Origin: Bombella favorum
GTDB lineage: Bacteria > Pseudomonadota > Alphaproteobacteria > Acetobacterales > Acetobacteraceae
Assembly: GCF_014048475.1 (NCBI RefSeq)
Contig: NZ_NWUS01000001.1
Coordinates: 372,001 to 436,000, forward strand
Reading direction: 5' to 3'
DNA: 64,000 bases
In this document: piece after piece, positions 9,855 through 29,887 of the stretch
Layout: every line of letters begins with the position of its first letter
Numbering within the stretch: position 1 is the stretch's first letter
Program-made: the position numbers and the translations under genes
The notes under the pieces: model-generated
What the model saw: the letters and a program-made list of their open reading frames with translations, nothing else
What the model was told of the DNA's origin: nothing
Database searches by the model: none

Positions 9855-10210
9855 ACACACTCTCCGTCCACCTAATAGACACCTCAAGCAGATCTAAACA
9901 TGGGGGGGATGGAAGAAGAGTTCAATGTTCGACGGAAAACTTAAAATTACGTTCCGGCCTCACAATATAAGCCAACCCTCTGTAACAGGACAAAACTAAC
10001 GATATTTTCAGATATAATGCCTGACACAAAAAGCTATTTTCTAGCTTGAAACGCCTTTCTCTATGCGCCATCGTATCTCGATTTTCTGCCCCCATGACAG
10101 AGATCAGCCCCATACCCCGAAACCGGGATTTGAGCAGCATTTAAAGGCCGTTGCCGTGTTCCAATTTTCAAAACTTCTTTCGTAATGGAGCTCCGCATCA
10201 AATCACACGC
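9855..10210. other. Stretch without a supported gene
   Basis: A 72-codon minus-strand frame exists at 9922-10140, but it has biased composition, no good ribosome binding site and no recognisable family. I see no RNA gene or repeat here. It separates the host genes from the remnant-rich accessory region. Confidence 0.4.
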
Positions 10211-10384
10211 TATGCTCATCAAACAGATGGCTCAACGCTTCACGGAATCCGAGGATAGGAACACGGTTTACATCTTCCCCGTTGGGCAACTGCCAAAAAG
10301 TACATGCAGTCATCATCTTTAACGGCTAGGTCCGGCAGGACGTTTTAATAGAAATGGATAAAGTCTTTAATCCGTCACGGACAT
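10211..10384 (-). pseudogene. Internally deleted copy of the immunity-like gene at 6699-7229
   Basis: By eye, 10211-10250 matches 6846-6885 (CTCATCAAA...ATGGCTCAA...CACGGAA), and 10285-10384 matches 7131-7229 (TACATGCAGTCATCATCTT through CCGTCACGGACAT). About 200 bp between them are missing. The join lies at CCAAAAAG, while the intact gene has CCAGAAAG at both edges of the lost segment (near 6924 and 7139), so deletion by short-repeat recombination is likely. The start now reads MSVTD then a stop. It is a dead copy. Confidence 0.8.
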
Positions 10385-10515
10385 GCTGCCCTGTAAAGCA
10401 CAGTTAACGGTCCACACCGCTCACAGCTCTACTATGGGACAGCCCGTAGAAAGAATACATCATGATTGATCAGTGTCCAATTATCCAAATAAATATATAA
10501 GAGAAAAATAAATAA
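10385..10515. other. Short AT-rich spacer
   Basis: Between the dead immunity copy and the bacteriocin locus. Nothing recognisable apart from rising AT content. Confidence 0.4.
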
Positions 10516-10716
10516 TTATTTTTTATTAAAAAAATCAAAATACCTATCAAGAAAATTGATCAAAAATAGAGAAACAACCATTGCGCATGCTTCATTTATT
10601 ATATTTGAATGAGGGAAATTAAAATACCTAACAAGATGCTCTATTAAAAATCCCAACAACAACAATAGCGCGAAAAATATTATTAAACCCATCGACTTTC
10701 TTACCAATCGAGACAT
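10516..10716 (-). CDS. Small two-helix membrane protein, candidate second bacteriocin immunity protein
   Basis: A 66-aa protein: MSRLVRKSMG then a hydrophobic helix (LIIFFALLLLLGFLIEHLV), a short loop, and a second helix (ACAMVVSLFLINFLDRYF). Size, two membrane segments and charged ends are typical of immunity proteins for small bacteriocins. The ATG at 10716 sits in TAATG with a stop of another frame, suggesting coupling to an upstream coding frame. It is downstream of the bacteriocin-like frame at 10628-10936. No named family. Confidence 0.5.
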   Translation of the reverse strand: MSRLVRKSMGLIIFFALLLLLGFLIEHLVRYFNFPHSNIINEACAMVVSLFLINFLDRYFDFFNKK

Positions 10717-10936
10717 TAGAGACCCCCTTGCACAGGAAATGCGGCCCACCAAGGAGCCGCACATAATAGAACACAATGAAAACAACGATGGTGGTGATGA
10801 TGCTAATTATGATAGCTACTCCACCGATAAGTGCACCCACCTTTCCCCCTTCAGGGAAGGCTGCCTCACCGGCCAATTGGCCCATACCAGTAATTACAAA
10901 TTTACATGCTTCTACGGTATTATTGTAATTGACCAC
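10628..10936 (-). CDS. Bacteriocin-like small protein, probably frameshifted
   Basis: A GTG-started frame: VVNYNNTVEACKFVITG, MGQLAGEAAFPEGGKVGALI, then a hydrophobic helix. The Gly/Ala-rich stretch before a membrane helix resembles class II bacteriocins. The frame opens directly after a stop with GGSNVV just before the GTG. One base out of frame immediately upstream is LPDRENNVAAG, which looks like the end of a double-glycine leader: one extra G would join it to GGSNVVNYNN. So this may be a bacteriocin gene broken by a single-base deletion. Its 3' third overlaps the membrane-protein gene by 89 bp. Confidence 0.4.
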   Translation of the reverse strand: MVNYNNTVEACKFVITGMGQLAGEAAFPEGGKVGALIGGVAIIISIITTIVVFIVFYYVRLLGGPHFLCKGVSNVSIGKKVDGFNNIFRAIVVVGIFNRASC

Positions 10937-11226
10937 ATTAGAACCACCCCAGCGGCCACGTTATTTTCGCGATCAGGCAGTAAAAACTGCCACAAAAATC
11001 AGAAAATAAGAAATTATCATGTATAAATCAAAAGAATTTCCCTTGCTTCCAGAGTAATTTATTTACTAAAATTTTAATTAGCGGATGTATATTTAAAAAA
11101 ACATTGAAATTTATCCTGACGACAGGATATAATCGTGTCTCATGCATTCCTAGCGACATGAGCGCACCAGCCTATCGTAATGACCTACGTAACATTGGCA
11201 TCATGTCTCAAAAAAATATAATACAA
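10937..11226. other. AT-rich stretch upstream of the second bacteriocin-like frame
   Basis: About 290 bp. It contains the out-of-frame leader-like codons described for the 10628-10936 entry (10950-10995). Bases 11040-11110 are AT-rich and could hold a promoter. No Fur-box-like sequence comparable to 11997-12015 is seen here. Confidence 0.4.
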
Positions 11227-11460
11227 TTACATTTTCTTACTTTTCTTATTTTTTCTTGCTTTTTCATAAATAAAAGGAACAATTACACTTGGTATTATGA
11301 CAATCGATAATGTAAAAAATATATTTTTATGCTTAATTCCAAAAACATAAAATATTGATAGCGTGAAAACTGCAACAATAATGGTTATTAAAAATGTTAT
11401 GAAGAAATCAATAAAAAGTCCCTTCAGAAAAACACTCGTATATTTAATTATTTTTTTCAT
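11227..11460 (-). CDS. Small membrane protein, probable microcin immunity protein
   Basis: A 77-aa protein starting MKKIIKYTSVFLKGLFIDFF, with two or three hydrophobic segments (ITFLITIIVAVFTLSIFYVF and IFFTLSIVIIPSVIVPFIY) and a very basic C-terminus (KARKNKKSKK). It lies 64 bp downstream of the double-glycine microcin gene on the same strand, the usual place for the immunity gene. I prefer the internal ATG at 11460 over 11481 because it starts the natural MKK membrane-protein N-terminus. Assignment is by size, topology and position. Confidence 0.6.
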   Translation of the reverse strand: MKKIIKYTSVFLKGLFIDFFITFLITIIVAVFTLSIFYVFGIKHKNIFFTLSIVIIPSVIVPFIYEKARKNKKSKKM

Positions 11461-11524
11461 TTTTAATACCCTATTCAACAAAAGTGCGATCCTAAGACAC
11501 TAGGACCGCACCCTGAGAAGACTA

Positions 11525-11896
11525 TCAATGATGGTGATGTTGATGCTGCTGGTGGTGGTGATGATAATAATTTATCACGCCATTGATTGCAGGGGCACAA
11601 TACTTTTTACCCAAATTCCCCCCCATAAAATTACCAGCCATTCGACCAATATTGCCTAAGACAGGCTGTCCAAACGGTATCAGACCGACAATTCTACCTC
11701 CCAAAGCAGCTCCAGCCGAGCTAGCCGCTATTTGGCATAGGGACGTTGCATTCTTTTGACTGAAAATATTACCGTCTTCGTCTTCGAGCAGCGACGCACC
11801 AGGGAAATCATCGCCCCATCCCCCAGCAATAACGGAGATCTCATAGGCATTAAGCTGCCTGATACTATCTTTTCTATTGGACGCAATAGCAGTCAT
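11525..11896 (-). CDS. Class II-type microcin precursor with double-glycine leader and poly-His tail
   Basis: A 123-aa precursor. Residues 1-26 form a leader ending LNAYEISVIAGG, the double-glycine type cleaved by peptidase-containing ABC exporters. The mature peptide (97 aa) begins WGDDFPGASL. It has two cysteines (SLCQIA, KKYCAPA), a Gly/Ala-rich amphipathic core with GxxxG-like spacing (AGAALGGRIVG, MAGNFMGGNLG), and ends in a tail with nine His in the last twelve residues. GGAG lies about ten bases before the ATG. A Fur-box-like site is about 100 bp upstream, as in known iron-regulated microcins. No exporter is encoded here, so secretion would need one elsewhere. The His tail is unusual and could bind metal (inference). 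Confidence 0.75.
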   Translation of the reverse strand: MTAIASNRKDSIRQLNAYEISVIAGGWGDDFPGASLLEDEDGNIFSQKNATSLCQIAASSAGAALGGRIVGLIPFGQPVLGNIGRMAGNFMGGNLGKKYCAPAINGVINYYHHHHQQHQHHHH

Positions 11897-11966
11897 AATC
11901 TCTGACTCCGAAGTTATTTGCCCTCACTTCCAAAGTAATGGAGCGGACAACATTTTTATTACCTCC

Positions 11967-11995
11967 ATTATATTTAAAAAATTATGAAAAATAAT
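11967..11995 (-). promoter_or_regulatory. Putative microcin promoter
   Basis: On the minus strand a perfect TATAAT (-10) at 11972-11967 lies 17 bases from a weak -35-like ATTATT at 11995-11990. The Fur box starts one base further upstream, so repressor binding would cover the -35 region. The start codon is about 70 bp downstream of the -10. Confidence 0.5.
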
Positions 11996-11996
11996 C

Positions 11997-12015
11997 GATA
12001 ATGATAATTATTATT
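11997..12015. promoter_or_regulatory. Fur box upstream of the microcin gene
   Basis: The 19-mer GATAATGATAATTATTATT matches the classical Fur consensus GATAATGATAATCATTATC at 17 of 19 positions. It sits directly upstream of the putative -35 of the microcin promoter. Iron-replete Fur would be expected to repress. AT-rich surroundings raise the chance of a fortuitous match, but the repeated GATAAT units argue against that. Confidence 0.7.
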
Positions 12016-12209
12016 AATAAAAAATAATTTAATATTATCTCACTGAAATTAAATGTTTTTCTTCTCACCGTGCCGTACCAAAGTTAGCCACACGAACATA
12101 TACATAGAATATTCCTATAATTTGGGTGCACAGAAATTACACCCCCGCAAAATGATCATCTTCCTCACCTTTCACTCCAAGGGACACACCTCTAGGGCAG
12201 GCGCTTCAA
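12016..12209. other. Junction between the bacteriocin locus and the truncated prophage
   Basis: Very AT-rich to about 12060, then composition rises toward the phage gene. The prophage reading frame appears to begin abruptly near 12190-12210, consistent with a deletion endpoint that removed the left part of the phage genome. No attachment repeat is recognisable. Confidence 0.45.
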
Positions 12210-13610
12210 TTGCCGCTCAAGGTCAGGCTGTTTCCAACGGGACGCAAGAAAAACCTATATGACTCTCAGACACGGGATGCGAGGGCGTCCCTGCATGGTC
12301 AGATCAATGACCTGTCCTCTGCCTATATGAATGGCAACACGCAAAATCAGGTGCCTGAACAACAGATCAGGTCACTCTACCAGCCGGATGAAGCTGACCG
12401 CATCGTCTCTGGCCTGAATGAGAGGCGGCAGGCTGGCCTTGCCCTCAACGCTCTGAAATGGGCCTCTCCTGCACAGGTCGGGGCCTACATGCAGGCGTCT
12501 CAAGCCGCTCTTGGTGATGCGAATGTGGACGACTACGCCACCCGTGCCCAGATACAGTCCCATCTACAGCTTGCTATGACCAAACGGGCACAAGCTCTTA
12601 GGGATGACCCGGCAGGATATGCCGCCGGGCACCCCACCGTGCAACAGGCATGGCAAGACTACCAACAGAACCAGACACCGGAAGCCTTCAATGCCTATGC
12701 TGGTAAGCTGCGGGCCGTACAGCAGATGATGGGCGTGGCTAACCCCCGCTATCTAACGGACGATCAGGCGCATAACATTATTAGCGGGCTTTCGGGCATC
12801 GACCCGACAAAACAGGCAATCTCCCCCATCATGGACGGCATGAAGCAGCATTACGGCAAGGCATGGAATGGCATTCTGGACGAGCTGGTGCAGAAGGGCC
12901 TGCCAGCCCCCTATGCGGTCATCGCCGACATGGACACGCCCCAGCAGGGAGCCGCACGGGCCGTTCTCCAGCGCAATATCCAGACCGGGACGGATGACCT
13001 CAAGCGTCTGGCGGGGCCTGATGCAGCCCAACTCAATGCCACGGCCAGCAACAACCCTGTGGGCAACAGTCTGGCCGACCTGCGCCAGACCATGCTCCTC
13101 CAGCAGGGCGGACCAGCCAGCTACAGGAACTTCTACGACACGGTGAAGATGCAGGCTCTGGGCTATATGGGCAAAGGCATGAACGTGAATGACGCCCTGG
13201 CTCAGGCCCGCAAGGACATGGTGGACCTGAAGTATGACACGTCCGGCTACCTGCGGACCCCGAAGGGCGAGATGGACACGACGCAGGACGCCCTCGCCAC
13301 CTTCATGTCCCGGCTGACGCCTGATGATGTCTCGGTCAGGCCACTGCCCGGTGTCAGTGAAAAGCTCTCCAACGAGCAGGTGCTGGCCAATGCCAGAGCA
13401 TCCGGCAAGTGGGTCTCAGTTTCGGACAACAGCGGCTACAGCCTGGCCATTCCCAGCAAGACGGTGCCGGGAGAATGGCAGTACCTGCAGGGGAAGGACG
13501 GTAACCAGATTGTTGTCCAGCGTAGCGATATCATGGCTGGACGGTATACCCCCAATCGCCTGACAGATATCAGAATCAAAAATTGGCTACGACCTAAAGG
13601 GGCTCTATAG
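12210..13610 (+). CDS. Phage internal virion protein, probably 5'-truncated
   Basis: A 466-aa polar, helix-rich protein (SQTRDARASLHGQINDLSSA onward) with no catalytic motif that I can see. It ends with a small domain (KWVSVSDNSGYSLAIPSKTV...GEWQYLQGKDGNQIVVQRSD) like the C-terminal end of large podoviral internal virion or transglycosylase-type proteins. The first dozen residues (MPLKVRLFPTGRKK) look unlike the rest, and there is no good ribosome binding site. I take it to be the surviving C-terminal half of a longer gene. Confidence 0.6.
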   Translation: MPLKVRLFPTGRKKNLYDSQTRDARASLHGQINDLSSAYMNGNTQNQVPEQQIRSLYQPDEADRIVSGLNERRQAGLALNALKWASPAQVGAYMQASQAALGDANVDDYATRAQIQSHLQLAMTKRAQALRDDPAGYAAGHPTVQQAWQDYQQNQTPEAFNAYAGKLRAVQQMMGVANPRYLTDDQAHNIISGLSGIDPTKQAISPIMDGMKQHYGKAWNGILDELVQKGLPAPYAVIADMDTPQQGAARAVLQRNIQTGTDDLKRLAGPDAAQLNATASNNPVGNSLADLRQTMLLQQGGPASYRNFYDTVKMQALGYMGKGMNVNDALAQARKDMVDLKYDTSGYLRTPKGEMDTTQDALATFMSRLTPDDVSVRPLPGVSEKLSNEQVLANARASGKWVSVSDNSGYSLAIPSKTVPGEWQYLQGKDGNQIVVQRSDIMAGRYTPNRLTDIRIKNWLRPKGAL

Positions 13611-13681
13611 AGCAGCAACGAAGGAAGACAGCCTTAATTTACTTGTCTACAAACAATAGGATATGAGATGGAAATTTTTAT

Positions 13682-15754
13682 TTACTCTAAATAACTATCT
13701 TGAATAACCTTGAAGGCACCATCAATATCATCACAGTCAATTACATATAATTTTATACCCAAGTCAGAAGAAATTTTTTCAGCTTGGGCACGAGATATAT
13801 CCTGATGCTCCTTTAATATATCAACTGAAAAAATTGGACGATTTCTAGATTCATCTTTCAATCTATTATTAAAAATACGATTTGGGTCAGCTTCTAGATG
13901 GATCATAATATTGACATCAATCTCTTTAAAAACTTCGCTATTTATTTTAGATAAACCATTTCCGTTGTCAATAATTACATGCCCATCCACAATAATTAAC
14001 CTACTATCTTGATCGCGCAAAGCATGAAAACCTTCAATCAAAAAACGTTGATTTTCGTCGATATCCATGTACCTCATTTGATCACGACTATCCGGCGATG
14101 TTTTGCGAGCAGTGGCGATAAGATTACCACCTGTAAGATGTTGAAATATGATCCTTTCGGAAAGTTTTTCTAAAAAAGTTGTTTTACCAACACCCGAAAT
14201 ACCAGTAACGGCAATTATATTTTGGGTCATTGGATCAAAATCCAGCTTGGCTCGCTTAATAAGTTTTTTAACCTTTTCGTGGGGAATTTCATATATCGAC
14301 TGCTGAGGATGCTTCTTGATGATACCAAAAGACACTAGTTCATGTATTGAAATCTCTGGTTCTATATAAGAGACAAGGAGGTAATTAATAACTTTCATAG
14401 GTCTTGTAGGTGACTCATTCCATTTTTTTCGCAACTCATCCTCACTATAAACAGACCTACCTCCCGTAAACCTCATGAGGTCCGCTATAGATTTTGCTGT
14501 TTTGACACTATCCAATACACCTAATACAGTAATACACTGAGAAGGCTCGTTTTTTGATTTCCCTTTATAAAAAAATAATAATGATCCAGGAGGTCCTAGC
14601 TTAGATTGAGCACGACAAAGATAAACTTTTCTGATAGTATTCCCCGGTTTTTTAGATTTACTATCAAACATACTCTTCTGCCTAGGGTCATACAGATCAG
14701 GATAAAGTATATCATGGTAATCTTCTTTAATTGGTATACCAAAACTACGTGTCTCGTCATCAAATAAGAACCTAGGATAACTTTGACACGCCTGATCAAA
14801 TGAATTAGTATCTTTTAATCTACATAATGGTTTGGAGGAGAACTTCCTTTCAAAAATACACTCTTTACCTTTATTTCCAAGATGAACAAACCCATAATAC
14901 TCCAACAATGAAATCAATGAAGTTTGATCTTCATATGTTGTAAGATAGACAAGGTTATATCTGTTACGCTGTGCATACCAAAACACCTGCTTCAATAAAA
15001 GCTCACCCAGCTTTATGCCACGACTTTTTGAGGAAACCTTAAATGTACATATTTTTAATATTTTCTCTAACTTAGTTACAGCATCTGTATTGCTCTTATT
15101 TTCATCTTTCCACACAATTAAACCAGCCAACCCATCATAATCATCATATACCACCCAACAAGAACGATGCTCCCTAATACATTTCTCCTTCCACCACGTA
15201 TTGAACTTAGGATATCCCTCTCGAAGGCTATCGAAAAAAGTATTACTAATATCTATCTCTTGAGCTTCTACTTTCTCAACATGACAAAATCTTACATGCC
15301 TTGGCTCATAAGTTTGAATGAGCAAATCTTTAGCATCATTTATAAAAAGAACACGCCGAGCTAAATCTGAAGAAAATCTCTGAGCACGTTGATGTATCCC
15401 TTTATCTTGGGTAACTAAAAAATCTACTGACCCCTGATCGAGAGAGTGTAAAATCTTCATATCCACGACATCGTTACGTTTCTTCATAGAACCAAAAAGA
15501 TTCTTTAACTTCTCTATATCTACCCCACGCTGCCCCTTAAGAATATTATATTTCCCAATCTTACTCAGTGAAACATCACGGCGTTTTTCATCCCTATCTT
15601 GTAAAAGATCATCTCTGGCTGTTTCATGCACATAAATATTAACCTTATATTTATTTGCTAAAGCCAGAAATGCCAAATAAACCTCTTCAACCGTATGGTC
15701 ATCTTCAAGCTCAATTAAAATATTTGTGTCAATAAGATACGATTGCTGGCTCAT
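13682..15754 (-). CDS. PIN - GNAT - PUA/ASCH-like - P-loop NTPase multidomain protein
   Basis: A 690-aa protein with four regions. Residues 4-150 form a PIN nuclease domain: YLIDTNILIELED with Asp9, VVDMKIL with Asp98, TQDKGI with Asp117. Residues 170-305 look like a GNAT acetyltransferase: CWVVYDDYDGLAGLIVWKDE, then KSRGIKLGELLLKQV as the acetyl-CoA loop, then LEYYGFVHLG. Residues about 340-500 resemble a PUA-like EVE/ASCH fold (IPIKEDYHDILYPDL, then GSLLFFYKGKS). Residues 512-690 are a P-loop NTPase or small-molecule-kinase-like domain with Walker A GISGVGKT (518-525) and VDGHVIID. Its start overlaps the 3' end of the upstream HTH-ASCH gene by 26 bp. The pair is far richer in A+T than the phage genes around it. 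A defence, toxin or RNA-modification role is inference. Confidence 0.7.
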   Translation of the reverse strand: MSQQSYLIDTNILIELEDDHTVEEVYLAFLALANKYKVNIYVHETARDDLLQDRDEKRRDVSLSKIGKYNILKGQRGVDIEKLKNLFGSMKKRNDVVDMKILHSLDQGSVDFLVTQDKGIHQRAQRFSSDLARRVLFINDAKDLLIQTYEPRHVRFCHVEKVEAQEIDISNTFFDSLREGYPKFNTWWKEKCIREHRSCWVVYDDYDGLAGLIVWKDENKSNTDAVTKLEKILKICTFKVSSKSRGIKLGELLLKQVFWYAQRNRYNLVYLTTYEDQTSLISLLEYYGFVHLGNKGKECIFERKFSSKPLCRLKDTNSFDQACQSYPRFLFDDETRSFGIPIKEDYHDILYPDLYDPRQKSMFDSKSKKPGNTIRKVYLCRAQSKLGPPGSLLFFYKGKSKNEPSQCITVLGVLDSVKTAKSIADLMRFTGGRSVYSEDELRKKWNESPTRPMKVINYLLVSYIEPEISIHELVSFGIIKKHPQQSIYEIPHEKVKKLIKRAKLDFDPMTQNIIAVTGISGVGKTTFLEKLSERIIFQHLTGGNLIATARKTSPDSRDQMRYMDIDENQRFLIEGFHALRDQDSRLIIVDGHVIIDNGNGLSKINSEVFKEIDVNIMIHLEADPNRIFNNRLKDESRNRPIFSVDILKEHQDISRAQAEKISSDLGIKLYVIDCDDIDGAFKVIQDSYLE

Positions 15755-16553
15755 CTTGAAGTGCCTTTCTCAAATCATGCTTAGCGTATAAGAAGGACTG
15801 AGGTGGCTCAAAACCAAATCTTTCCCTCAATTCACTCAAAGGCAATGGACGAGTAAATGACTTCACATCACCAAAAAACAAAGCATAACCTTGGTCTACT
15901 CCTTCAAAGTATTTATCAAACATATGACGTTCAATAAAGGCTAGATGTTTGAATTCATCCCATATTTTCTCGACTGGCAATTTCACAACACCACGGATCA
16001 AAACCGTTCCAACAATAGCCTTCACAGGAGCACTTGAATAAATATAAGCGACAATACCATTAGGAACTTCAACAGGGAAACGACGACGCAACTCTACAGT
16101 CTTTCTACCAGAAAGAATTTTTTCAGAATAAATGGGCTTAATCGATAAGACTACATCACGATGTTTCTCGAATTTTTCTTCCTCCATTAAAGAAAAAACC
16201 AACTGACTATTACCACTTTTCTCATAAAAAAAATGTTTATCATGTAGTCTCGCATTAATAGGCGCATCAGCTGAAAAATGAGCATTCAAACGTAAAGAAG
16301 CTCCTAGTGCAGTAACGTATCGTTCGATAGTACTGAGATAAATCTCTCCACCATCTTCAATCTTAGATATCACTACGCACTCTTCGTTCATGGCCTCAGC
16401 AACCTGTGCTTGGCTAAGACCTGATATAATCCGCAACCTTTTAAGTTCATGACCGACACGAGACGCTGCGCCAGCACGTCCAATGGAAACGGCGCACATA
16501 CTAACGATTTTCTCAGTAAGACCAACCAAATTTATATCCCTCCATTTTTTCAT
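15729..16553 (-). CDS. XRE-type HTH regulator fused to an ASCH domain
   Basis: A 274-aa protein. Residues about 35-95 form an XRE-type helix-turn-helix (VGHELKRLRIISGLSQAQVA, then VVISKIEDGGEIYLSTIERYV). Residues about 132-250 match the ASCH fold: VVLSIKPIYSEKILSGRKTVELRRRFP, a strand with IVAYIYSSAPVKAIVG, and a late FFGDVKSFTRPLPLSEL. ASCH domains are thought to bind RNA or modified nucleotides. First gene of the cargo operon, overlapping the PIN-GNAT gene. An inverted repeat about 75 bp upstream may be its operator, suggesting autoregulation as in toxin-antitoxin or defence modules. Role is inference. Confidence 0.75.
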   Translation of the reverse strand: MKKWRDINLVGLTEKIVSMCAVSIGRAGAASRVGHELKRLRIISGLSQAQVAEAMNEECVVISKIEDGGEIYLSTIERYVTALGASLRLNAHFSADAPINARLHDKHFFYEKSGNSQLVFSLMEEEKFEKHRDVVLSIKPIYSEKILSGRKTVELRRRFPVEVPNGIVAYIYSSAPVKAIVGTVLIRGVVKLPVEKIWDEFKHLAFIERHMFDKYFEGVDQGYALFFGDVKSFTRPLPLSELRERFGFEPPQSFLYAKHDLRKALQDEPAIVSY

Positions 16554-16625
16554 TCTTGTACAACAGATTTTTAAACAACATTGCTTAACAAAAATAATAA
16601 TTTTCTATTAATACTAACCTCACAG

Positions 16626-16646
16626 CGCATAATAATATTATATGCG
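16626..16646. promoter_or_regulatory. Inverted repeat, candidate operator of the HTH-ASCH gene
   Basis: CGCATA, nine bases of A/T, then TATGCG: a perfect six-base dyad about 75 bp upstream of the HTH-ASCH start in AT-rich DNA. The spacing fits binding by an XRE dimer. No direct evidence beyond symmetry and position. Confidence 0.4.
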
Positions 16647-16682
16647 TTTTTAAATACCACAATTCTTAAAAAAAATAAAGAT

Positions 16683-16707
16683 ACACCAGAATTACAAACC
16701 CCTGACA
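16683..16707 (+). repeat. 25-bp intergenic repeat, copy 1, with a hairpin over the ribosome binding site
   Basis: 24 of 25 bases are identical to 22089-22113. Immediately downstream CCTCCC (16712-16717) can pair with GGGAGG (16723-16728), so the Shine-Dalgarno of the gene at 16733 lies in the 3' arm of a hairpin. The same layout occurs at copy 2. It could be a phage late promoter or a translational control element. Confidence 0.7.
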
Positions 16708-16732
16708 TGCTCCTCCCCCACCGGGAGGGGTT

Positions 16733-19564
16733 ATGTCATTATTTGCGGGCGGACTGAACACACTCAAAAGCGTTCAGGATGAAGGGCTAGCAGGTCAGCA
16801 GTCATCTTTTGACCAGTCTTTAGGTACTTCCATTGTTGATGGCATCAATGACATGCCCACCATTCGCATTGGGAGCTGGCTACAGCGTAAGAATGAGGGA
16901 ACCGAAGGAGATATTCTAACTCCAGAAGATGCCAATGCCCGCTATGGCATCAAGGATGTTCTCAATTTCGACAAGCCTATTTCTTCCTCGATTGCCCAAA
17001 CCCTCAATGAGGATAAACAACAGCAGCTCATCAGGCAGAATACCATTCGGAACGGTCCTGGTGGTGTCATCAATCGCACATTAACAGCATTTGCCGGTGC
17101 GGCTCCTTCTTTTCTGGACCCCATAAATTATGCTGCGACATTTATTCCCGGCCTAGGTGAAAGCCGCATCGCCATGGTTTTAGGCCGTGCCGCTGCCCGT
17201 GCCGAGGGCTTTGGCCTAGAGAGTGTGGCTGATGGTCTTCTCAGTGCCGAAGGGCTAAATCGCCGTGTCGGGGCAGCTTTATCCAGCAATCTTCCCGGTC
17301 GTGTGGTCCAAGGTGCCAGTCAAGGTGCTGCTGGCATGGCGGCTTTGGAACCGCTTAATTTCTATCTTGATCGTGACGAACATAACGATTGGAGCATGGG
17401 GCAGGCTCTGGGGAACATCGCCTTTGGTGGTTTCATGGGCGGTTCTCTGCATGGTCTTGGCTATGCGCTCGGGAAGCGTCTGGACCGTGCAGGCACCGAT
17501 GCCAAGGGGCAGGTTCTGGCCGATGGCATGTCATCAATGGCTAGCGACAGCCCTAGCAATGCCGAAAGCCTGCTAAATATCCATGAAGTACAGAAAACTA
17601 GAGAAGACCTTGACCGGGCCATGTCAGAGCATGGCGATACGCCCGACATTAGTGCTGGTAGTGATGAAAATTCTTCTGCTTCTGAGGGAAACGAAGACGG
17701 TGCGCCCGAGGCACAACAATACCCTCCCCTACGTGATAGGATATCCTCTGACCTCTCCGACATCAAAAAAAGCCATGCTGAAACGCTTGATGAGTCTGCG
17801 CTTTATGAAAAGCCAAACGATACACAAAATAATGTCGTATCTGCTGACCCAGTAAGGCTCAAAAAAACTAAAAACCCTCCATCACTTTTTACTTTTCTTA
17901 ACCGTTATGGCGGGGTGATTGACCAAGGTGGAGATCTAAGAGGGCAAGACATCCATCGCCAGCGCATCGGGCTTATCAGACGCCGTGGTGGTATGCCGCT
18001 GGATGATGCTCGAAGCCTGGCCATTCAGCATGGCTACTTAAAGCCTGATGCCGACATAAACGACCTGATAAATGCAATGGTCGAAGAAAGCCACGGTCGG
18101 AAGGTGTTCCCCGATGGGCAGATTTTTGAAAAAGAACGTGACTTCGCTGCATTAGATGACCACTACCGTGAGATTGCCGCTGATGATGCCGATGAAGCCT
18201 CTTACAACGCTGGCATATCACTGACGCCAGAAGAACATAGACACGCTATTGAAGCCATCCTTTCGGGTATTCATCCAGATGCCGCCGTAGAAGAAGCGAT
18301 GATGTCCTATCGTCATTCCACATGGGACCGCTATGCCGACATGATGGACGAAGGCAGGGCATTCCATATGGAGCGCATCGGCACAAAGCAGATGCTCCTT
18401 CATTCTATCGCCCGCCAGCGTCTGGGTCTTTATGCCAAACATCTTGATTCTGACATTGATAATCTCAGCCTATACGATCTAGCAGAATCAATTCTGAAAC
18501 ATGATAGTTCAGATGACGCCGTAGAACACGCCCTACGTCTCATCGAGAATGGCAAAGGCAAAGGCCATGATGCTTCTGCCTGGCAGGAAACTGTGCAGGA
18601 AGCCTATCAGGCAGCGCACCAGCGTCTCGATGAGCTGCAACAGGGTGCAGCCGAAGCCATCATGCGGAACCTGCATGGGTATGAGGACCATGAAGTAACG
18701 CAGAGCCGTGCAGGCCTATCTGCCCAAAGAGAAGCTGCTCCCAGACCGGAAACAGGGCAATACACGTCTCCACTTCCCTCTGGCGGCATTGAGCATCTGG
18801 ACCTTTCAGCGGCAGGGAGCAACCCGGTTATGGTCGGACGGATGCCTTCCGGCATTGAGGGCGTTCCAGACTGGCCTGTCATTCTGGGTGATGGGGAACA
18901 TGCTCCCAAACTGACAAAAAGCGGACGTGACATAGGTGGAGGTCATGGAAGGCTGCACATCTCCGCCCGTCATGGTGACGAAATCAGAGGTCGTGGTTTT
19001 GCTGACATTGATTCCTACATCCGTCACATCTTCCGGAACATGAACCAGATCAGGCAGGATGAAGCGAAAGGCGGCCATGACACTGGTTCCTACTTCTCCG
19101 TCCATATGGGCGATGCCAGAGGCAGGAAAGATAAGCATGATACGGCTGTCCTCCATCTCATGAAAGAAGGTGGCTATTACCGTGTCGGTACATCCAGTGC
19201 TTTTGAAACGAAATATCTGGAGAAACGAAAGCTGCTATGGGATGGAAGCCGCCTCAACCTATCGCACCCTGCCGAAAAGAATGCCGACCTTCCCCCGTCA
19301 TCACCTAATAAATCCGGCAGTGATGCCGTGTATACCAGTAGCCGCCACAACAGCACCTCCGACAATGGAAATCTTGCCAGCAAAAGTCAAGCCATTATCG
19401 AAGCACAAACCTACTCTGACCAGATAGACCGTCAGCTTGCCACCCTAGGCGATCAGATAAGCCCCGAAGAACTGGCAGAGATCCAACGTGAGAAAACCCT
19501 CTCCGATGGCAATGTAGATGCCCTTACCTCCGCTGCTGCCTGCCTGACAAGGAAAGCCCCATGA
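16733..19564 (+). CDS. Large phage virion protein with a C-terminal PBECR-like nuclease domain
   Basis: A 943-aa internal-virion-type protein. The N-terminus (MSLFAGGLNTLKSVQDEGLA) and the Gly/Ala-rich hydrophobic stretch at residues 105-250 fit podoviral ejection proteins that cross membranes. Residues about 735-850 read LHISARHGDEIRGRGFADID, then SYIRHIFRNMNQI, later GGYYRVGTSSAF and ETKYLEKRKLLW. This order of strands and His/Arg/Tyr positions resembles the BECR-fold nucleases of phage polyvalent proteins (PBECR). If so, a ribonuclease would enter the host with the DNA. The virion role is fairly safe by context; the nuclease call is from pattern recognition only. Its last bases overlap the next gene (ATGA). 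Confidence 0.65.
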   Translation: MSLFAGGLNTLKSVQDEGLAGQQSSFDQSLGTSIVDGINDMPTIRIGSWLQRKNEGTEGDILTPEDANARYGIKDVLNFDKPISSSIAQTLNEDKQQQLIRQNTIRNGPGGVINRTLTAFAGAAPSFLDPINYAATFIPGLGESRIAMVLGRAAARAEGFGLESVADGLLSAEGLNRRVGAALSSNLPGRVVQGASQGAAGMAALEPLNFYLDRDEHNDWSMGQALGNIAFGGFMGGSLHGLGYALGKRLDRAGTDAKGQVLADGMSSMASDSPSNAESLLNIHEVQKTREDLDRAMSEHGDTPDISAGSDENSSASEGNEDGAPEAQQYPPLRDRISSDLSDIKKSHAETLDESALYEKPNDTQNNVVSADPVRLKKTKNPPSLFTFLNRYGGVIDQGGDLRGQDIHRQRIGLIRRRGGMPLDDARSLAIQHGYLKPDADINDLINAMVEESHGRKVFPDGQIFEKERDFAALDDHYREIAADDADEASYNAGISLTPEEHRHAIEAILSGIHPDAAVEEAMMSYRHSTWDRYADMMDEGRAFHMERIGTKQMLLHSIARQRLGLYAKHLDSDIDNLSLYDLAESILKHDSSDDAVEHALRLIENGKGKGHDASAWQETVQEAYQAAHQRLDELQQGAAEAIMRNLHGYEDHEVTQSRAGLSAQREAAPRPETGQYTSPLPSGGIEHLDLSAAGSNPVMVGRMPSGIEGVPDWPVILGDGEHAPKLTKSGRDIGGGHGRLHISARHGDEIRGRGFADIDSYIRHIFRNMNQIRQDEAKGGHDTGSYFSVHMGDARGRKDKHDTAVLHLMKEGGYYRVGTSSAFETKYLEKRKLLWDGSRLNLSHPAEKNADLPPSSPNKSGSDAVYTSSRHNSTSDNGNLASKSQAIIEAQTYSDQIDRQLATLGDQISPEELAEIQREKTLSDGNVDALTSAAACLTRKAP

Positions 19565-22077
19565 CCCATGATAACCCCTGCTACAACGAGGCAGAGAAAG
19601 CCGCTGGCCGTGAAATGTCCAAGGCAGAACTTGATGAGATGTTCGGGCGGCTGGAGAAAGAAGCCGGACGCTACATGAAACAAGGCCTGTCCCCACGGGA
19701 AGCACTGGAGAAAGCCGGTGCCCGCATGGCCGATGAGGAACGTCTGGCCGGTATCATCGAGGCTAATGCCCGCAAGAAGAACCTCATCGTCCGGGCCGAA
19801 CTGCGCCGCCGCATCGTAGCTGGTGATGAAGCAGCCTCTCTGGAAGGTATTCTCGCTGGGAAGCAAAATGGGGAGCGTGATGCCGCCCTCTCTGTGGATG
19901 CTAACAGCCATGCCCGCATTGCCCAGCTTCTCGGGCCTCTCATGCACGATCTGGACAAAGCAGGAGTCTTCAAAGCCCTACTGAAGCGTGATGAACAATT
20001 TGATGCCGATGTGGCCCGTGAAATGTGGCGTCTGGATGACCCTAAATCTGGAGACGCAACAGGCAATAAGCTGGCTGCCGAAGCCGCTCGCATTCTGTCT
20101 GAATATCAGGACACAGTGCGACTTATGCAGAACAAGCAAGGCGCATGGATTGGCAAGGCCGACCATTACGTCACCCGCCAGAGCCATGACATGTGGAAGA
20201 TACGGGGCGATGGGTCGGAACGCTCTTACCAGAACTGGCGGGACACCATCTTCCCACTGCTGGATGACCGTACTTTTGAGATGATGCCCGCAAAGCAGTC
20301 GAGGGAAGACTTTCTCCGTAATGTCTGGCTAAACCTCTCCACGGGTGAGCATGACAATGCCAACGGGCGGGATTGGCTTTCTGGCTTCAAAGGCACATCC
20401 AACAAAGCCAAGAAGGTCAGTCAGAACCGTGTGCTGCACTTCAAAGATGCCGATGGTTGGCTGGCCTATAACAAGAAGTTCGGTCAGGGCCATGTAGTGG
20501 ACAGCATCTTCAAGGGACTCATAAACGGAGCACGCAATGCTGCTGTAATGGGCGATCTGGGCACCAACCCTGAGAACATGTTCCGCAGCATGATCGAAGA
20601 AAGCGTGCAGGCCGCTCGTGAGAGGGCTGATGCCAAAATGGTTGATAAGCTCCGCCGGTTGGAAAGAGGTGCCTTGATGGACATCGTGACAGGTAGAGCC
20701 AGACAGCCGGCCAACAAGACGGTTGAAACCATCGGGGCCTATGTTCATGCGTGGAACCAAGTGACAAAACTGGGCGGTGTGATGATCTCCTCCCTGCCCG
20801 ATCTAGCCGTGAATGCCTCTGTTTTGCGGCATAATGGTGTTCCTCTACTGGAAAGCTACTGGAACAGCCTGAAATCCCTTGCACCCGGACTTGCCAGCGA
20901 AAACCCAGAAGAACGTAAAGAGATTGCCCGGATACTCGGCGTGGGTTTGCAAGGACATCTTGGGTCCGTCATGAGCCGCTTTTCCGCCAATGATGCCCCT
21001 CTGGGAAAGATGAGCGATCTCATCAACAAGTTTTACCGCATCAACGGCCTGCAATACTGGACAGACAGCCTATCAGAAGGCATCGGCATGATGCTTTCCC
21101 ACAATCTGGGACGTAATGCAGGTCTGGCCTATGAAGCTCTTGATGGAAAGCTAAGATTCAGCCTGAAACGCTTTGGCATCACGCAGCCAGAATGGGACGT
21201 AATACGGCAGGCCGTGCGAACAGCGGCAGGAGAAGACCATATCCTACCCAGCGAGATGGGTCGCCTGTCTGATGAGGCTGTGGCTCCCCTCATCGAAAAA
21301 GGACAGACAGCCGAGGACGTACGAGACAGCCTGACCCGCAAGCTCTATGCCTACATCACCGACCAGACACGGGAGGGCATGACGGAACCTGATGCCCGCA
21401 CTCAGGCAACCTTCCGGGGCATCAGCAACCGGCTGGATGACGTGAACCCACTGCTCGGGCAGGCCGCACGGCTGATGCTCCAGTTCAAGAGCTTTCCTCT
21501 CTCACATGTCCGCCGTTTCTATCAACGTGAAGTAAAGCGCAACGGGCTGGACCTGCCCGGTATCGTCCATATGATCGCCGCCACGACCGTGCTGGGATAT
21601 GTTGCCATGCAGACAAAGGCCATACTGGCCGGAAAAGAGCCACGAGATGCAGGCGATGTCCGCACATGGATGTCCGCTATGGCTCAGGGCGGAGGGGCCG
21701 GCATTTATGGCGATTTCCTCTTTGGCCAGCAAAGCCGTATGGGGAACGCAGTACTGGAAACAGCGGCGGGTCCAACCCTTTCAGACATGACAAAACTGGC
21801 AAGAATTTTCTTCTCAACCCGTGATGAACTAATAGGCAGCCCCGATGCTGGAAAGGCCCGCACCTATCTGTCCGACCTTGTGCGCTTCGCTTCAGGGCAA
21901 ATACCGGGTGGTAATCTCCCATTTATTAACATCGCACTGAAATATAGCATCATTTACAGCCTGCAAGACATGATAAACCCTGGCTACACGGCCCGCTATG
22001 AAAAGCTAGTCAAGCGCAATCAGGGACAGGGCTTCTTGGTGTCTCCTACGCATAATCTCTACAATGCGATCAAATAA
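19561..22077 (+). CDS. Large phage internal virion protein (polyvalent-protein-like)
   Basis: An 838-aa protein with an early helical region rich in Arg/Glu (AELDEMFGRLEKEAGRYMKQ), a middle block KADHYVTRQSHDMWKIRG, and a late region LGQAARLMLQFKSFPLSHVR followed by hydrophobic segments. This resembles the large ejection/internal proteins found next to capsid genes in podovirus prophages. No catalytic motif is seen. It overlaps the upstream gene by 4 bp and ends 72 bp before the scaffold gene. Confidence 0.65.
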   Translation: MTHDNPCYNEAEKAAGREMSKAELDEMFGRLEKEAGRYMKQGLSPREALEKAGARMADEERLAGIIEANARKKNLIVRAELRRRIVAGDEAASLEGILAGKQNGERDAALSVDANSHARIAQLLGPLMHDLDKAGVFKALLKRDEQFDADVAREMWRLDDPKSGDATGNKLAAEAARILSEYQDTVRLMQNKQGAWIGKADHYVTRQSHDMWKIRGDGSERSYQNWRDTIFPLLDDRTFEMMPAKQSREDFLRNVWLNLSTGEHDNANGRDWLSGFKGTSNKAKKVSQNRVLHFKDADGWLAYNKKFGQGHVVDSIFKGLINGARNAAVMGDLGTNPENMFRSMIEESVQAARERADAKMVDKLRRLERGALMDIVTGRARQPANKTVETIGAYVHAWNQVTKLGGVMISSLPDLAVNASVLRHNGVPLLESYWNSLKSLAPGLASENPEERKEIARILGVGLQGHLGSVMSRFSANDAPLGKMSDLINKFYRINGLQYWTDSLSEGIGMMLSHNLGRNAGLAYEALDGKLRFSLKRFGITQPEWDVIRQAVRTAAGEDHILPSEMGRLSDEAVAPLIEKGQTAEDVRDSLTRKLYAYITDQTREGMTEPDARTQATFRGISNRLDDVNPLLGQAARLMLQFKSFPLSHVRRFYQREVKRNGLDLPGIVHMIAATTVLGYVAMQTKAILAGKEPRDAGDVRTWMSAMAQGGGAGIYGDFLFGQQSRMGNAVLETAAGPTLSDMTKLARIFFSTRDELIGSPDAGKARTYLSDLVRFASGQIPGGNLPFINIALKYSIIYSLQDMINPGYTARYEKLVKRNQGQGFLVSPTHNLYNAIK

Positions 22078-22088
22078 TATGAAAAGGC

Positions 22089-22113
22089 ACACTAGAATTA
22101 CAAACCCCTGACA
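22089..22113 (+). repeat. 25-bp intergenic repeat, copy 2, with a hairpin over the ribosome binding site
   Basis: Matches 16683-16707 at 24 of 25 bases. Downstream CCTCCA (22120-22125) can pair with TGGAGG (22136-22141), placing the Shine-Dalgarno of the scaffold gene (ATG 22150) in a stem. Two copies with different stem sequences but the same structure argue for function. Confidence 0.7.
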
Positions 22114-22149
22114 CCCTCTCCTCCACCATAAATGATGGAGGTTCTGGGG

Positions 22150-22848
22150 ATGGCTGAAATCCCGACATCTGATGCCCCGGCTACTGATACCGGGACCAGT
22201 CAAACCACGACAGAAGCGGCAGACAACACCAGCCTGATGGGCAAAGATTCCTCTACCGGGAATAGTGAGGGGGAAACATCCCCCTCATCTGGCGAACACA
22301 CTGCTGAAAAGACCGCAGAAGGCGAAGCCAACGGGGAAAAAGAGGCAGAAGATAAGCCCAAGGCACCCGAAAAATACGAGTTTACCCCACCGGATGGCAT
22401 GGAGATCGACAAGGAAGCCCTGTCTTCCTACGAGGCTCTGACCCGTGAGCATGGGCTGTCTCAAGAGCAGTTCGATGCCATCACGAAACACGGGCTGGAG
22501 TTCTTCCAGAACCGCCTGACAGGCCTAGCAGAGCAACATGCCTCCATCCAACAGGGCTGGCGGGACACGGCCCTAAAGGACAAGACGCTCTCCGATGGGG
22601 AGAGTCTGAAACCAGAGGTCATGCAGAACGTGGCCCACGTCTTCAGCCAGTTCGGGGGCGAGAAAGACGCCCTCCGCAAGGCTCTGGTCGAGACCGGGGC
22701 GGGCAATCACCCTGCCGTCATCCATGCCTTCAATGCCATCGGGAAAGCCCTTGGGGCTGCCCAGACACCCGATCGGGGAAAACCGGCCAGCGAGCTGAAA
22801 GACAACAGCTATGAGGCCATTGCCCGCCGCCGTTATGGCTCCAACTGA
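22150..22848 (+). CDS. Phage scaffolding protein
   Basis: A 232-aa acidic, Glu/Lys/Ala-rich protein directly upstream of the capsid gene. The first 85 residues are low-complexity (TDTGTSQTTTEAADNTSLMG). The rest contains EKYEFTPPDGMEIDKEALSS and LSQEQFDAITKHGLEFFQNR, the usual capsid scaffold pattern, followed by a charged C-terminus. I start at the ATG at 22150 because GGAGG is nine bases upstream; the ATG at 22132 would place that site inside the gene. Confidence 0.8.
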   Translation: MAEIPTSDAPATDTGTSQTTTEAADNTSLMGKDSSTGNSEGETSPSSGEHTAEKTAEGEANGEKEAEDKPKAPEKYEFTPPDGMEIDKEALSSYEALTREHGLSQEQFDAITKHGLEFFQNRLTGLAEQHASIQQGWRDTALKDKTLSDGESLKPEVMQNVAHVFSQFGGEKDALRKALVETGAGNHPAVIHAFNAIGKALGAAQTPDRGKPASELKDNSYEAIARRRYGSN

Positions 22849-22864
22849 CAAGGACAACTGAACC

Positions 22865-23929
22865 ATGTCGCTCAATAGCAGCACATTTCTGACACTGGCT
22901 GACTGGGCTGCCCGCCGTGACCCCAATGGCGGCATTGCCGATACCGTCAACCTGCTCTCTCAGACTAATGAGATTCTGGATGACCTGATCTTCAAGGAAG
23001 GAAACCTTGCGACCGGCAACAAGACGACCGTCCGCACAGGCCTGCCATCAGCCACATGGCGTATGCTCAATTATGGTGTGCCTCGTGGCAAATCCACCAC
23101 CGCACAGGTAACAGATACCTGCGGGATGCTGGAAACCTATTCCACCATCGACAAGGACCTCGCCAACCTTGAAGGCGATGTCGCCGCCTTCCGTCTGTCT
23201 GAAGACCTCGCCTTCCTTGAGGGCATGAACCAGCAGATGGCCCGCACCCTGTTTTATGGCAATGAACAGAAGGACGTTGCCGCATTCACAGGTCTTTCTC
23301 CCCGCTTCAACACGCTGGATACTAGCAAGGCACCGTCTGCTGCCAACGTGATGGATGCGGGAGGTCGTGGCAGCACGAACACCTCCATCTGGCTCTGCTG
23401 CTGGGGGCCGACATCCGGCTTTGGTATCTTCCCCAAAGGGTCCGTTGCTGGTCTTCAGCAGAAGGATGTCACGACTGATGCGCCAATTCTTGATGAGAAT
23501 GGAAACCCGTATCAGGCCTACCAGATGCATTACAAATGGGATTGTGGCCTAACCATCCGTGACTGGCGGTATTTTGTCCGTATCGGCAATATTGACGTCT
23601 CCAAGCTGACTGGCCCGGATGCAGCCAACCTAATTGCCCTGATGGCTGCTGCCTGCTTCAAGCCGCCGACCATGCCCAGCTCTGCCTCCAACGTGCAGGC
23701 TGCAACACGAGCTACAGGCGGTTCTCCGCTCTCCTTTGGTCGTCCTGCTTTCTATGTAAACCGCACGATTGCCTCTGCCCTGTCCATTCAGGCCATGAAC
23801 AAGACGAACGTGCTGCTCACGCAGGACCAGTTCGATGGCAAGCCGGTGCTTCGCTTCCGTGGCATCCCCATCCGTGTGGTGGACGCCATCATGAACACAG
23901 AAGACACCATCACAGGATTTGCATCATGA
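22865..23929 (+). CDS. Major capsid protein (Bordetella phage BPP-1-like group)
   Basis: A 354-aa protein beginning MSLNSSTFLTLADWAARRDP, then IADTVNLLSQTNEILDDLIF and TTVRTGLPSATWRMLNYGVP. This is the N-terminal pattern of HK97-fold major capsid proteins in BPP-1-like podoviruses. It sits between scaffold and cement-protein genes, which supports the call. Its stop overlaps the following ATG (ATGA). Confidence 0.85.
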   Translation: MSLNSSTFLTLADWAARRDPNGGIADTVNLLSQTNEILDDLIFKEGNLATGNKTTVRTGLPSATWRMLNYGVPRGKSTTAQVTDTCGMLETYSTIDKDLANLEGDVAAFRLSEDLAFLEGMNQQMARTLFYGNEQKDVAAFTGLSPRFNTLDTSKAPSAANVMDAGGRGSTNTSIWLCCWGPTSGFGIFPKGSVAGLQQKDVTTDAPILDENGNPYQAYQMHYKWDCGLTIRDWRYFVRIGNIDVSKLTGPDAANLIALMAAACFKPPTMPSSASNVQAATRATGGSPLSFGRPAFYVNRTIASALSIQAMNKTNVLLTQDQFDGKPVLRFRGIPIRVVDAIMNTEDTITGFAS

Positions 23930-24363
23930 TTACCGACAGACTGCTCAATTTCTCCAATGCTCAGGACCTGACACAGGCCCCCGCTGGACAGGATACGCCT
24001 TCTACCAACGTCATTGACTTCTCCCAGCCCCGTGACTTCGGGCCGACCGAGGGCTTCAAGGTCTGGGTAGAGTTTCCCAATACACCATCTCCGAACAGTG
24101 GCAGGCTGGACGTGAAGATTCAGGTCTCCACTGACAACCAGAACTGGAACACGCTGGAAGAGCTGCCGGGCATCGACCTCTCCCTCATCGGGCCGGGCAG
24201 CCCGTTTGCTGTCCGGGCAAAACCGGCTTTTGCAAACACGCCTTACCGCTACATGCGCCTTACCTATAACCCGGCACAGGCCATGTCCAACTGCACGGTG
24301 ACGGCTGGCATCAATCTCGATGTTCCTGCCCAGATTGCTTATCCTAAGAACTACGTAGCGTGA
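23926..24363 (+). CDS. Capsid cement protein, Bbp16-like
   Basis: A 145-aa beta-rich protein. MITDRLLNFSNAQDLTQ, then TNVIDFSQPRDFG, LDVKIQVSTDNQNWNTLEEL and YRYMRLTYNPA match the jelly-roll cement protein (Bbp16 type) that decorates BPP-1-like capsids. Position immediately after the capsid gene, with 4-bp overlap, is the family norm. Confidence 0.8.
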   Translation: MITDRLLNFSNAQDLTQAPAGQDTPSTNVIDFSQPRDFGPTEGFKVWVEFPNTPSPNSGRLDVKIQVSTDNQNWNTLEELPGIDLSLIGPGSPFAVRAKPAFANTPYRYMRLTYNPAQAMSNCTVTAGINLDVPAQIAYPKNYVA

Positions 24364-24370
24364 GGCGATC

Positions 24371-24667
24371 ATGGCAAGATACCGCATCACACAGAATAGC
24401 TTCATCAACGGTCACTTTGTGGCCGCTGGTGAGGACGTTGATTATGCAGGAATCCCCGGCTTCAATCTTGATCCGCTGGATGATGAAGCTCGTGCCGCCA
24501 AGGAAAAGGCTGGCTTGCTGGCCCAGAGGGATGTGAACAGTCGGGAGTTTCAGGAAGACTTGACACGACCCGATGGTGCGGCTCCCCAGCAGGAAGACCT
24601 GCTTGCTCCCAAAGCTGATGAACCGGCCGTAGATGAGAAGGCTGGCAAGAAGTCTTCTAAAGGGTAA
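24371..24667 (+). CDS. Small phage structural-module protein
   Basis: 98 aa: MARYRITQNSFINGHFVAAG and EDVDYAGIPGFNLDPLDDEA, then a charged Lys/Glu/Ala-rich tail. Short proteins with a 'R-Y-x-I...I-N-G...-G-x-x-V-x-Y' opening often sit between cement and adaptor genes. Exact role unknown. Confidence 0.6.
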   Translation: MARYRITQNSFINGHFVAAGEDVDYAGIPGFNLDPLDDEARAAKEKAGLLAQRDVNSREFQEDLTRPDGAAPQQEDLLAPKADEPAVDEKAGKKSSKG

Positions 24668-24673
24668 GGCATC

Positions 24674-27716: not shown

Positions 27717-27724
27717 GGTAACTT

Positions 27725-28782: not shown

Positions 28783-28810
28783 TACCGCCTGCCAAACGAG
28801 ACAATGAACA

Positions 28811-28833
28811 GCCGCCCATGAGGCGGTTTTTTT
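28811..28833 (+). terminator. Rho-independent terminator between structural and lysis modules
   Basis: CCGCC, loop CATGA, GGCGG followed by seven T. It is a clean intrinsic terminator just after the tail-assembly gene, so the lysis cassette may be read through or have its own promoter. Confidence 0.8.
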
Positions 28834-28849
28834 ATACCCAGAGGATACA

Positions 28850-29188: not shown

Positions 29189-29189
29189 C

Positions 29190-29845: not shown

Positions 29846-29887
29846 CTGAACCCGGCTCTTTCATCCCTCCTAGAAAAGGAAATCACC

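What the first reader, a model, noticed from the sequence alone, without database searches (positions are those of the whole stretch)
11525..12015. Iron-regulated class II-type microcin with a poly-histidine tail
Seen: a 26-residue double-glycine leader, a Gly/Ala-rich mature peptide with two Cys, a C-terminus with nine His in twelve residues, a small basic membrane protein just downstream, and a 17/19 Fur-box match beside a TATAAT promoter. Known: enterobacterial class II microcins are often Fur-regulated, and class IIb ones carry a siderophore at the C-terminus. Inference: the His tail may substitute as a metal-binding uptake handle. I know of no characterised acetic-acid-bacterium microcin of this kind.
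Basis: partly seen in the sequence, partly recalled or inferred. Interest (0 to 1): 0.82.

Follow-up and report, generated by a model that had tools for sequence, protein, structure and literature searches.

The report
Bee-symbiont microcin with histidine-rich tail
A bee-associated acetic acid bacterium carries a probably iron-controlled gene pair that looks like a small secreted antibacterial peptide plus its immunity protein, and the peptide ends in an unusual run of histidines that a relative in another species also has, in a genus reported to have no bacteriocins.

Summary
Window 11525-11896(-) encodes a 123-aa precursor: 26-residue double-glycine leader, Gly/Ala-rich mature part with two Cys, 9 His in the last 12 residues. 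A 77-aa basic protein with two TM segments follows, and a 17/19 Fur box lies about 100 bp upstream; the "TATAAT promoter" is weak.

Tools add: (1) Bombella intestini has a 112-aa relative at the same place with similar leader, the same AGG|WG cut, two Cys, CAPAIN...NYYH motif, a tail with 14 His, an adjacent TM protein and a 17/19 Fur box. (2) The window also holds a decayed copy of that relative, still followed by an open immunity-like gene. (3) The genome encodes a C39-peptidase ABC exporter with HlyD and TolC partners, beside two tail-less peptides with similar leaders. (4) The Fur consensus (at most 3 mismatches) finds three sites in the genome; the other two stand at the start of TonB-receptor genes. 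(5) The cassette sits in a phage-gene-bearing insertion absent from a relative.

Best reading: Fur-controlled class II-type microcin-immunity pair with a gene-encoded His-rich C-terminal module, in a genus reported to lack bacteriocins (PMC9147383). Antibacterial activity and the tail's role (metal-bound uptake handle, or acid-switched charge) are untested.

The parts
11525..11896 (-). M1, microcin precursor, 123 aa; leader 1-26, mature 27-123, His tail 112-123
11525..11563 (-). His-rich C-terminal tail (9 His of 12) and stop
11819..11896 (-). 26-residue double-glycine leader; same pattern as the peptides beside the exporter
11997..12015 (.). Fur box, 17/19; best of three sites with at most 3 mismatches in the whole genome
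11481..11514 (-). 15-bp hairpin between M1 and I1, followed by a short U run; possible attenuator or partial terminator
   Evidence: -20.7 kcal/mol, z -4.8, stretch chosen by eye; the consensus terminator scan did not list it
11227..11460 (-). I1, putative immunity protein, 77 aa, two TM segments, basic
10782..11020 (-). Decayed second microcin, relative of the intact B. intestini gene; reading frame broken in the leader and before the tail; remains of the tail include a His-codon run
10739..10762 (-). Hairpin between the decayed microcin and I2
   Evidence: -18.9 kcal/mol, z -1.8
10516..10716 (-). I2, open orphan immunity-like gene, 66 aa, 68% identical to the protein beside the B. intestini microcin
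9950..30612 (.). Stretch of 20.7 kb with phage head and tail genes and the microcin cassette; relative G004 has 252 unmatched bases between the same flanks

Best explanation
M1-I1 is a class II-type microcin and its immunity protein in a Bombella species. Shown by sequence: precursor with double-glycine leader; adjacent two-TM basic protein; Fur box upstream; complete C39-ABC/HlyD/TolC exporter elsewhere in the genome; a relative with the same architecture in B. intestini. Inferred: when iron is scarce Fur releases the promoter; the precursor goes to the shared exporter on another contig; the C39 domain cuts after AGG; the 97-aa peptide leaves through TolC and kills close relatives by inserting its Gly-rich helices in their inner membrane; I1 protects the producer. 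Inferred with less confidence: the His-rich tail is a gene-encoded docking module at the place where class IIb microcins carry a siderophore. It either binds metal and is taken up through a metal or iron receptor, or becomes strongly cationic in acid and holds the peptide to the target surface. The next-door decayed microcin with a still open immunity-like gene fits turnover of toxin types under competition between strains.
For: Architecture. B. intestini relative with the same cut site, Cys pair, CAPAIN...NYYH motif and a 14-His tail although the cores differ (32% identity over 100 aa, E 9e-14 for the single comparison). Exporter: C39 3.3e-35 with ABC domains, HlyD_3 5.3e-16, OEP 1.7e-51, with two double-glycine peptides beside it; the C39 exporter is present in both microcin carriers. 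Fur box: three sites with at most 3 mismatches in 1.97 Mb, reversed-pattern control 0, the other two at the start of frames with a TonB Plug domain. B. intestini has a 17/19 box in the matching place, the promoter stretches 78% identical over 173 bp. GC-rich hairpin between toxin and immunity gene in both intact pairs.
Against: No Pfam or NCBIfam model recognises M1 (MccV E 0.34, 11.9 bits against a cut-off of 27), so membership rests on architecture. No activity, transcript or peptide data. The exporter locus has no good Fur box (best 13/19 in 18 kb) and lies on another contig, so co-regulation is not shown. Among 21 loci fetched around Fur-type sites in the genus, 12 were not scanned and several of these show no long ORF or no iron gene by eye near the site, so the consensus alone is not specific. 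Mature mass is 10.3 kDa, just over the 5-10 kDa quoted for class II. The family is narrow: 2 of 11 genus genomes. I1 has no relative in the other 396 family genomes searched. I2 and a fragment of its decayed partner show similar dN/dS (0.39 and 0.32, few sites), so continued selection on I2 is not proven. The AlphaFold model of M1 was useless (pLDDT 41).
Confidence: 0.78

Rival explanations
1. Acid-switch reading of the tail: the peptide is a microcin, but the His run serves as a pH-dependent positive charge that binds the target surface in acidic nectar, royal jelly or larval gut, and not as a metal handle.
For: Computed charge of mature M1 is about +10.9 at pH 4 with the tail and +2.0 without; at pH 7 it is about -0.3 and -1.1. 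B. intestini: +15.4 and +1.1 at pH 4. The acid habitat of Bombella and the poor metal binding of protonated His are background knowledge.
Against: Does not explain Fur control. His-tail spacing (HHHH, HxH) also suits metal binding.
Confidence: 0.35
2. Secreted metallophore: a double-glycine peptide exported under iron starvation to gather metal for the producer, without killing anything.
For: Fur box shared with TonB receptors; His-rich tail.
Against: Small TM genes paired with the peptides, different for the two peptide types, and a decayed peptide whose partner gene is still open fit toxin-immunity pairs better.
Confidence: 0.1
3. Signal or autolysis peptide: a double-glycine peptide acting on the producer's own population, like the bacteriocin-like peptides reported for gonococcal autolysis (PMC11798529, seen only in the listing).
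For: Same leader and exporter type.
Against: An immunity-like gene is next to each copy.
Confidence: 0.07
4. Chance ORF or remnant: the leader match is accidental and the His run is a CAN microsatellite.
For: The double-glycine pattern alone also matches the end of another ORF in the window.
Against: Relative in another species with leader pattern, cut, Cys, tail and Fur box; 0 of 100 shuffles give a His-rich frame end; the tail mixes CAT and CAC codons.
Confidence: 0.04

Closest known systems
Class IIa microcins (MccV type)
   Same: Double-glycine leader, unmodified core with possible disulfide, C39-ABC/HlyD/TolC export, adjacent small TM immunity protein, frequent Fur control (features from passages of PMC10233263, PMC9746304 and PMC10333792)
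   Different: No significant sequence match (MccV model E 0.34); His-rich tail; acetic acid bacterium; exporter genes not linked to M1
Class IIb microcins (MccE492, MccH47, MccM type)
   Same: Conserved C-terminal module behind a variable core; iron control in some
   Different: No Gly/Ser-rich siderophore-attachment motif; the conserved C-terminal module is CAPAIN...NYYH plus a His run encoded in the gene
Mcc17978 of Acinetobacter baumannii (PMC10333792, abstract and passages read)
   Same: Microcin system outside Enterobacterales with a putative Fur site, iron-starvation induction and an iron-transporter receptor
   Different: Histidine is not mentioned in its main text; its immunity candidate is a cupin-like protein, here a small TM protein
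Double-glycine peptides beside the Bombella C39 exporter (L004 6144-6560 and 6823-7233)
   Same: Leader pattern L...E[LI]..[VI].G[GA], Gly-rich core
   Different: No His tail, no Fur box of 14/19 or better in the locus; peptides of this type in five of the seven exporter loci of the genus

Membership tests
Class II microcin | N-terminal leader ending in GG or GA | tested here: met
Class II microcin | Mature peptide of about 5-10 kDa | tested here: inconclusive
   10.3 kDa for M1, 9.7 kDa for the B. intestini relative
Class II microcin | C39-peptidase ABC transporter, membrane fusion protein and TolC in the genome | tested here: met
Class II microcin | That exporter cuts and exports M1 | not testable with these tools
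   Only leader similarity to the exporter-adjacent peptides
Class II microcin | Small TM protein encoded next to the precursor (51-216 aa) | tested here: met
   I1 77 aa, two TM; I2 66 aa, two TM; a homologue of I2 beside the B. intestini peptide
Class II microcin | The adjacent protein gives immunity | not testable with these tools
   Needs a bench test
Class II microcin | Antibacterial activity | not testable with these tools
   Needs a bench test
Class II microcin | Iron control through Fur (common, not universal) | tested here: inconclusive
   Box present and supported by context; binding and expression not tested
Pfam MccV family (PF17508) | Score above the curated cut-off | tested here: not met
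   11.9 bits against a cut-off of 27
Class IIb microcin | Gly/Ser-rich C-terminal siderophore-attachment motif | tested here: not met
   C-terminus is CAPAIN...NYY plus a His run

The most novel reading that the evidence does not exclude
A third subclass of class II microcins in which the C-terminal uptake module is a gene-encoded His-rich tail in place of an attached siderophore: the toxic core changes between species while the leader pattern, the CAPAIN...NYY motif and the His tail stay, so that the tail carries the peptide into competitors through a metal-related receptor or an acid-triggered surface contact, in a genus reported to have no bacteriocins.
Probability: 0.35. Interest if true: 0.85.

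Novelty: new variant of a known kind. Interest (0 to 1): 0.62.

Why it matters
Characterised class II microcins come mostly from enteric bacteria (abstracts and passages of PMC10233263, PMC9746304), and a BAGEL4 screen of 22 Bombella genomes reported no bacteriocins (PMC9147383, abstract and passages read). A Fur-controlled, exportable, immunity-paired peptide family in a bee symbiont genus associated with larval protection would give a concrete candidate for competition in the hive. A C-terminal His tail would be, to my knowledge, the first gene-encoded substitute for a siderophore handle, testable by truncation, and the peptide could be purified on nickel resin without an added tag.

Tried and rejected
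Searches for relatives outside Bombella gave nothing convincing: genome contigs (two scans; only B. intestini), viral contigs (two scans), plasmids and phages by tblastn with M1 and with the B. intestini peptide. In 397 family genomes, 6 matched at E <= 0.01: own, B. intestini and four marginal ones (E 0.003-0.009). A first look at three of the four covered one strand only and missed the matched frames of two; one search read the matched frames of 121 and 162 aa whole and parts of the long frames around the other two matches: no double-glycine leader with a His tail. In 385 class genomes, 3 matched at E <= 0.001: own and two others, read: a permease-like protein with a His-rich loop and a small Gly/His-rich protein with a signal-peptide-like start; both rejected as compositional.

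The structure prediction of M1 failed (pLDDT 41) and no fold search was run. The solved-structure search gave only weak matches (best E 0.1) to unrelated proteins, most of them at chain ends; that these are purification tags is my guess. A Fur-type hit in G006 lies inside that genome's own Fur-family coding match and is not counted as a promoter site. dN/dS could not show that I2 is under stronger constraint than its decayed partner. A first regex for double-glycine leaders was wrong and found nothing, not even M1; the corrected one is. Class IIb membership was rejected for lack of the Gly/Ser-rich motif.

Full report
Observation. On the minus strand the window holds a 123-aa ORF (11525-11896) with a 26-residue leader ending IAGG, a 97-aa Gly/Ala-rich mature part with two Cys, and HHHHQQHQHHHH at the end. 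A Shine-Dalgarno-like GGAG lies a few bases before the ATG (my reading). A 77-aa basic protein with two TM segments follows. A 17/19 Fur-box match lies at 11997-12015. The leader pattern alone is weak evidence: 2 qualifying frames in the window against a mean of 0.31 (largest 2) in 100 shuffles; a His-rich frame end is seen once against 0 of 100.

Relatives. Of 195 genomes searched with M1, own included, two matched: own and G001. The genome-contig scan finds the same place on a contig of the same length, named Bombella intestini R-52487. Its 112-aa precursor keeps the leader pattern (L...EI..VAGG), WGD after the cut, two Cys, CAPAIN...NYYH and 14 His in its last 23 residues, with a different core. 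Its own 17/19 Fur box is in the matching place, and the two upstream stretches are 78% identical over 173 bp. Only 2 of 11 genus genomes have the peptide. No convincing relative was found in the rest of 397 family genomes, in 385 class genomes, plasmids, phages or viral contigs.

A second, decayed unit. Downstream of I1 lies a copy related to the B. intestini gene, 75% identical in DNA over 304 bp and then 81% over 365 bp that include the immunity-like gene. Its reading frame is broken in the leader and before the tail, but His codons of the tail remain. The immunity-like gene after it (I2, 66 aa, 68% identical) is open. So the locus reads promoter/Fur - M1 - I1 - decayed M2 - I2, against promoter/Fur - M - I in B. 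intestini. GC-rich hairpins, in stretches that I chose by eye, stand between toxin and immunity gene in all three pairs: -20.7 (M1-I1), -19.3 (B. intestini) and -18.9 kcal/mol (decayed pair), z -4.8, -3.7 and -1.8. The consensus terminator scan did not list them, so they may be weak terminators or processing sites.

Exporter. The genome has one C39 peptidase match. It is part of a 732-aa ABC exporter (C39, ABC_membrane, ABC_tran) next to HlyD-type and OEP/TolC-type genes. Two peptides beside it, of 138 and 136 aa, start MRELSxxELxxVSGAG, the same pattern as the end of the M1 leader. Seven of 11 genus genomes have a C39 match, both microcin carriers among them. Six of the seven exporter loci (18 kb each) show at least one double-glycine peptide by regex, one (L049) none. 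The exporter locus has no Fur box better than 13/19.

Fur. The E. coli-type consensus (recalled) with at most 3 mismatches finds three places in 1.97 Mb and 0 for the reversed control; the M1 site is the best. The other two lie at the 5' end of open frames with a TonB Plug domain (E 5.7e-19 and 2.5e-19). In the genus search every genome had sites; reversed-pattern control hits were 0 in 10 of 11 genomes, and G002 had one on each strand. Of 21 further loci fetched there and looked over, one is the B. intestini microcin, eight were chosen for Pfam because an ORF starts by the site (seven Plug, one ferritin), and 12 were not scanned: by eye one of these (L075) has the same ORF start as a Plug protein, several have no ORF of 100 aa near the site or none that looks iron-related, and one site lies inside a Fur-family gene. 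All 11 genomes have Fur-family genes. The box is credible, above all for being the best site and conserved in B. intestini, but binding and expression are untested.

Setting. In relative G004, tRNA-Val(CAC) and the glyoxalase gene stand about 0.55 kb apart; in the window the same two stand about 21 kb apart, and the stretch 9950-30612 has 252 unmatched bases in its place in G004. The extra DNA holds phage head and tail genes and, at the glyoxalase end, the microcin cassette. B. intestini has a shorter version (about 6.8 kb unmatched) with part of the phage genes and the microcin. G003 has a phage gene next to the glyoxalase gene but no microcin. This suggests phage-borne cargo, but no second copy of the tRNA 3' end of 11 bases or more was found in the window, and integrase genes were not searched for.

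Mechanism. Shown: anatomy, relatives, exporter, Fur site. Inferred: low iron releases the promoter; C39 cuts after AGG; TolC release; insertion in the inner membrane of related competitors; protection by I1. The tail is the open point. Without it the mature peptide is near neutral (+2.0 at pH 4, -1.1 at pH 7), with it +10.9 and -0.3. So it can work as an acid-switched positive charge, or as a metal binder near neutral pH. Fur control favours a metal or receptor route; the acid habitat (background knowledge) favours the charge route.

Literature. [quoted passage not shown] Searches Bombella + microcin (2 papers, listing only), Acetobacteraceae + microcin (3 papers, listing only), Bombella + bacteriocin (29 papers, 15 listed), and searches combining microcin or bacteriocin with histidine terms (10 listed; 20 of 1,121 listed; 15 of 25 listed) showed, in titles and abstract openings, no description of this peptide or of a His-tailed microcin. 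This covers open-licence PMC papers only, and capped listings. PMC10149009 (one passage) notes a bacteriocin exporter gene in all Commensalibacter genomes studied. Passages of PMC10259446 mention Bombella prophages but bacteriocin genes only for Paenibacillus larvae prophages. In PMC13174018 none of six terms asked for occurred. Class features are taken from passages of PMC10233263, PMC9746304 and PMC10333792.

Noticed in passing
L004 6144-6560 and 6823-7233 (own contig C3): Two Gly-rich double-glycine peptides beside the C39 exporter, nearly identical in B. intestini and varied in other Bombella; one matches DUF5862 just below its cut-off (28.7 against 33.3 bits).
   Followed up: partly
L051 11518-12295: In genome G006 the C39 exporter locus carries three short double-glycine peptides; two share a repeated FFPPEV-like motif.
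   Followed up: no
window 13682-16553: A minus-strand gene pair (690 aa with an acetyltransferase-like part and a kinase-like end; 274 aa with a regulator-like start) between phage structural genes; matches phrog_10674 and phrog_11553, function unknown.
   Followed up: partly
window 11113-11221: Stretch between I1 and the decayed microcin that the B. intestini alignment does not cover, with a small inverted repeat by eye; possibly a small mobile element.
   Followed up: no
window 26085-27716: Glycoside-hydrolase-like ORF (levanase/fructosidase type by eye) among phage tail-region genes.
   Followed up: no
window 4753-4803 and 6738-6788; 7136-7215 and 10290-10369: Two diverged direct repeats (86% over 51 nt, 78% over 80 nt) near the island's edge, suggesting repeated insertions or duplications there.
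   Followed up: no
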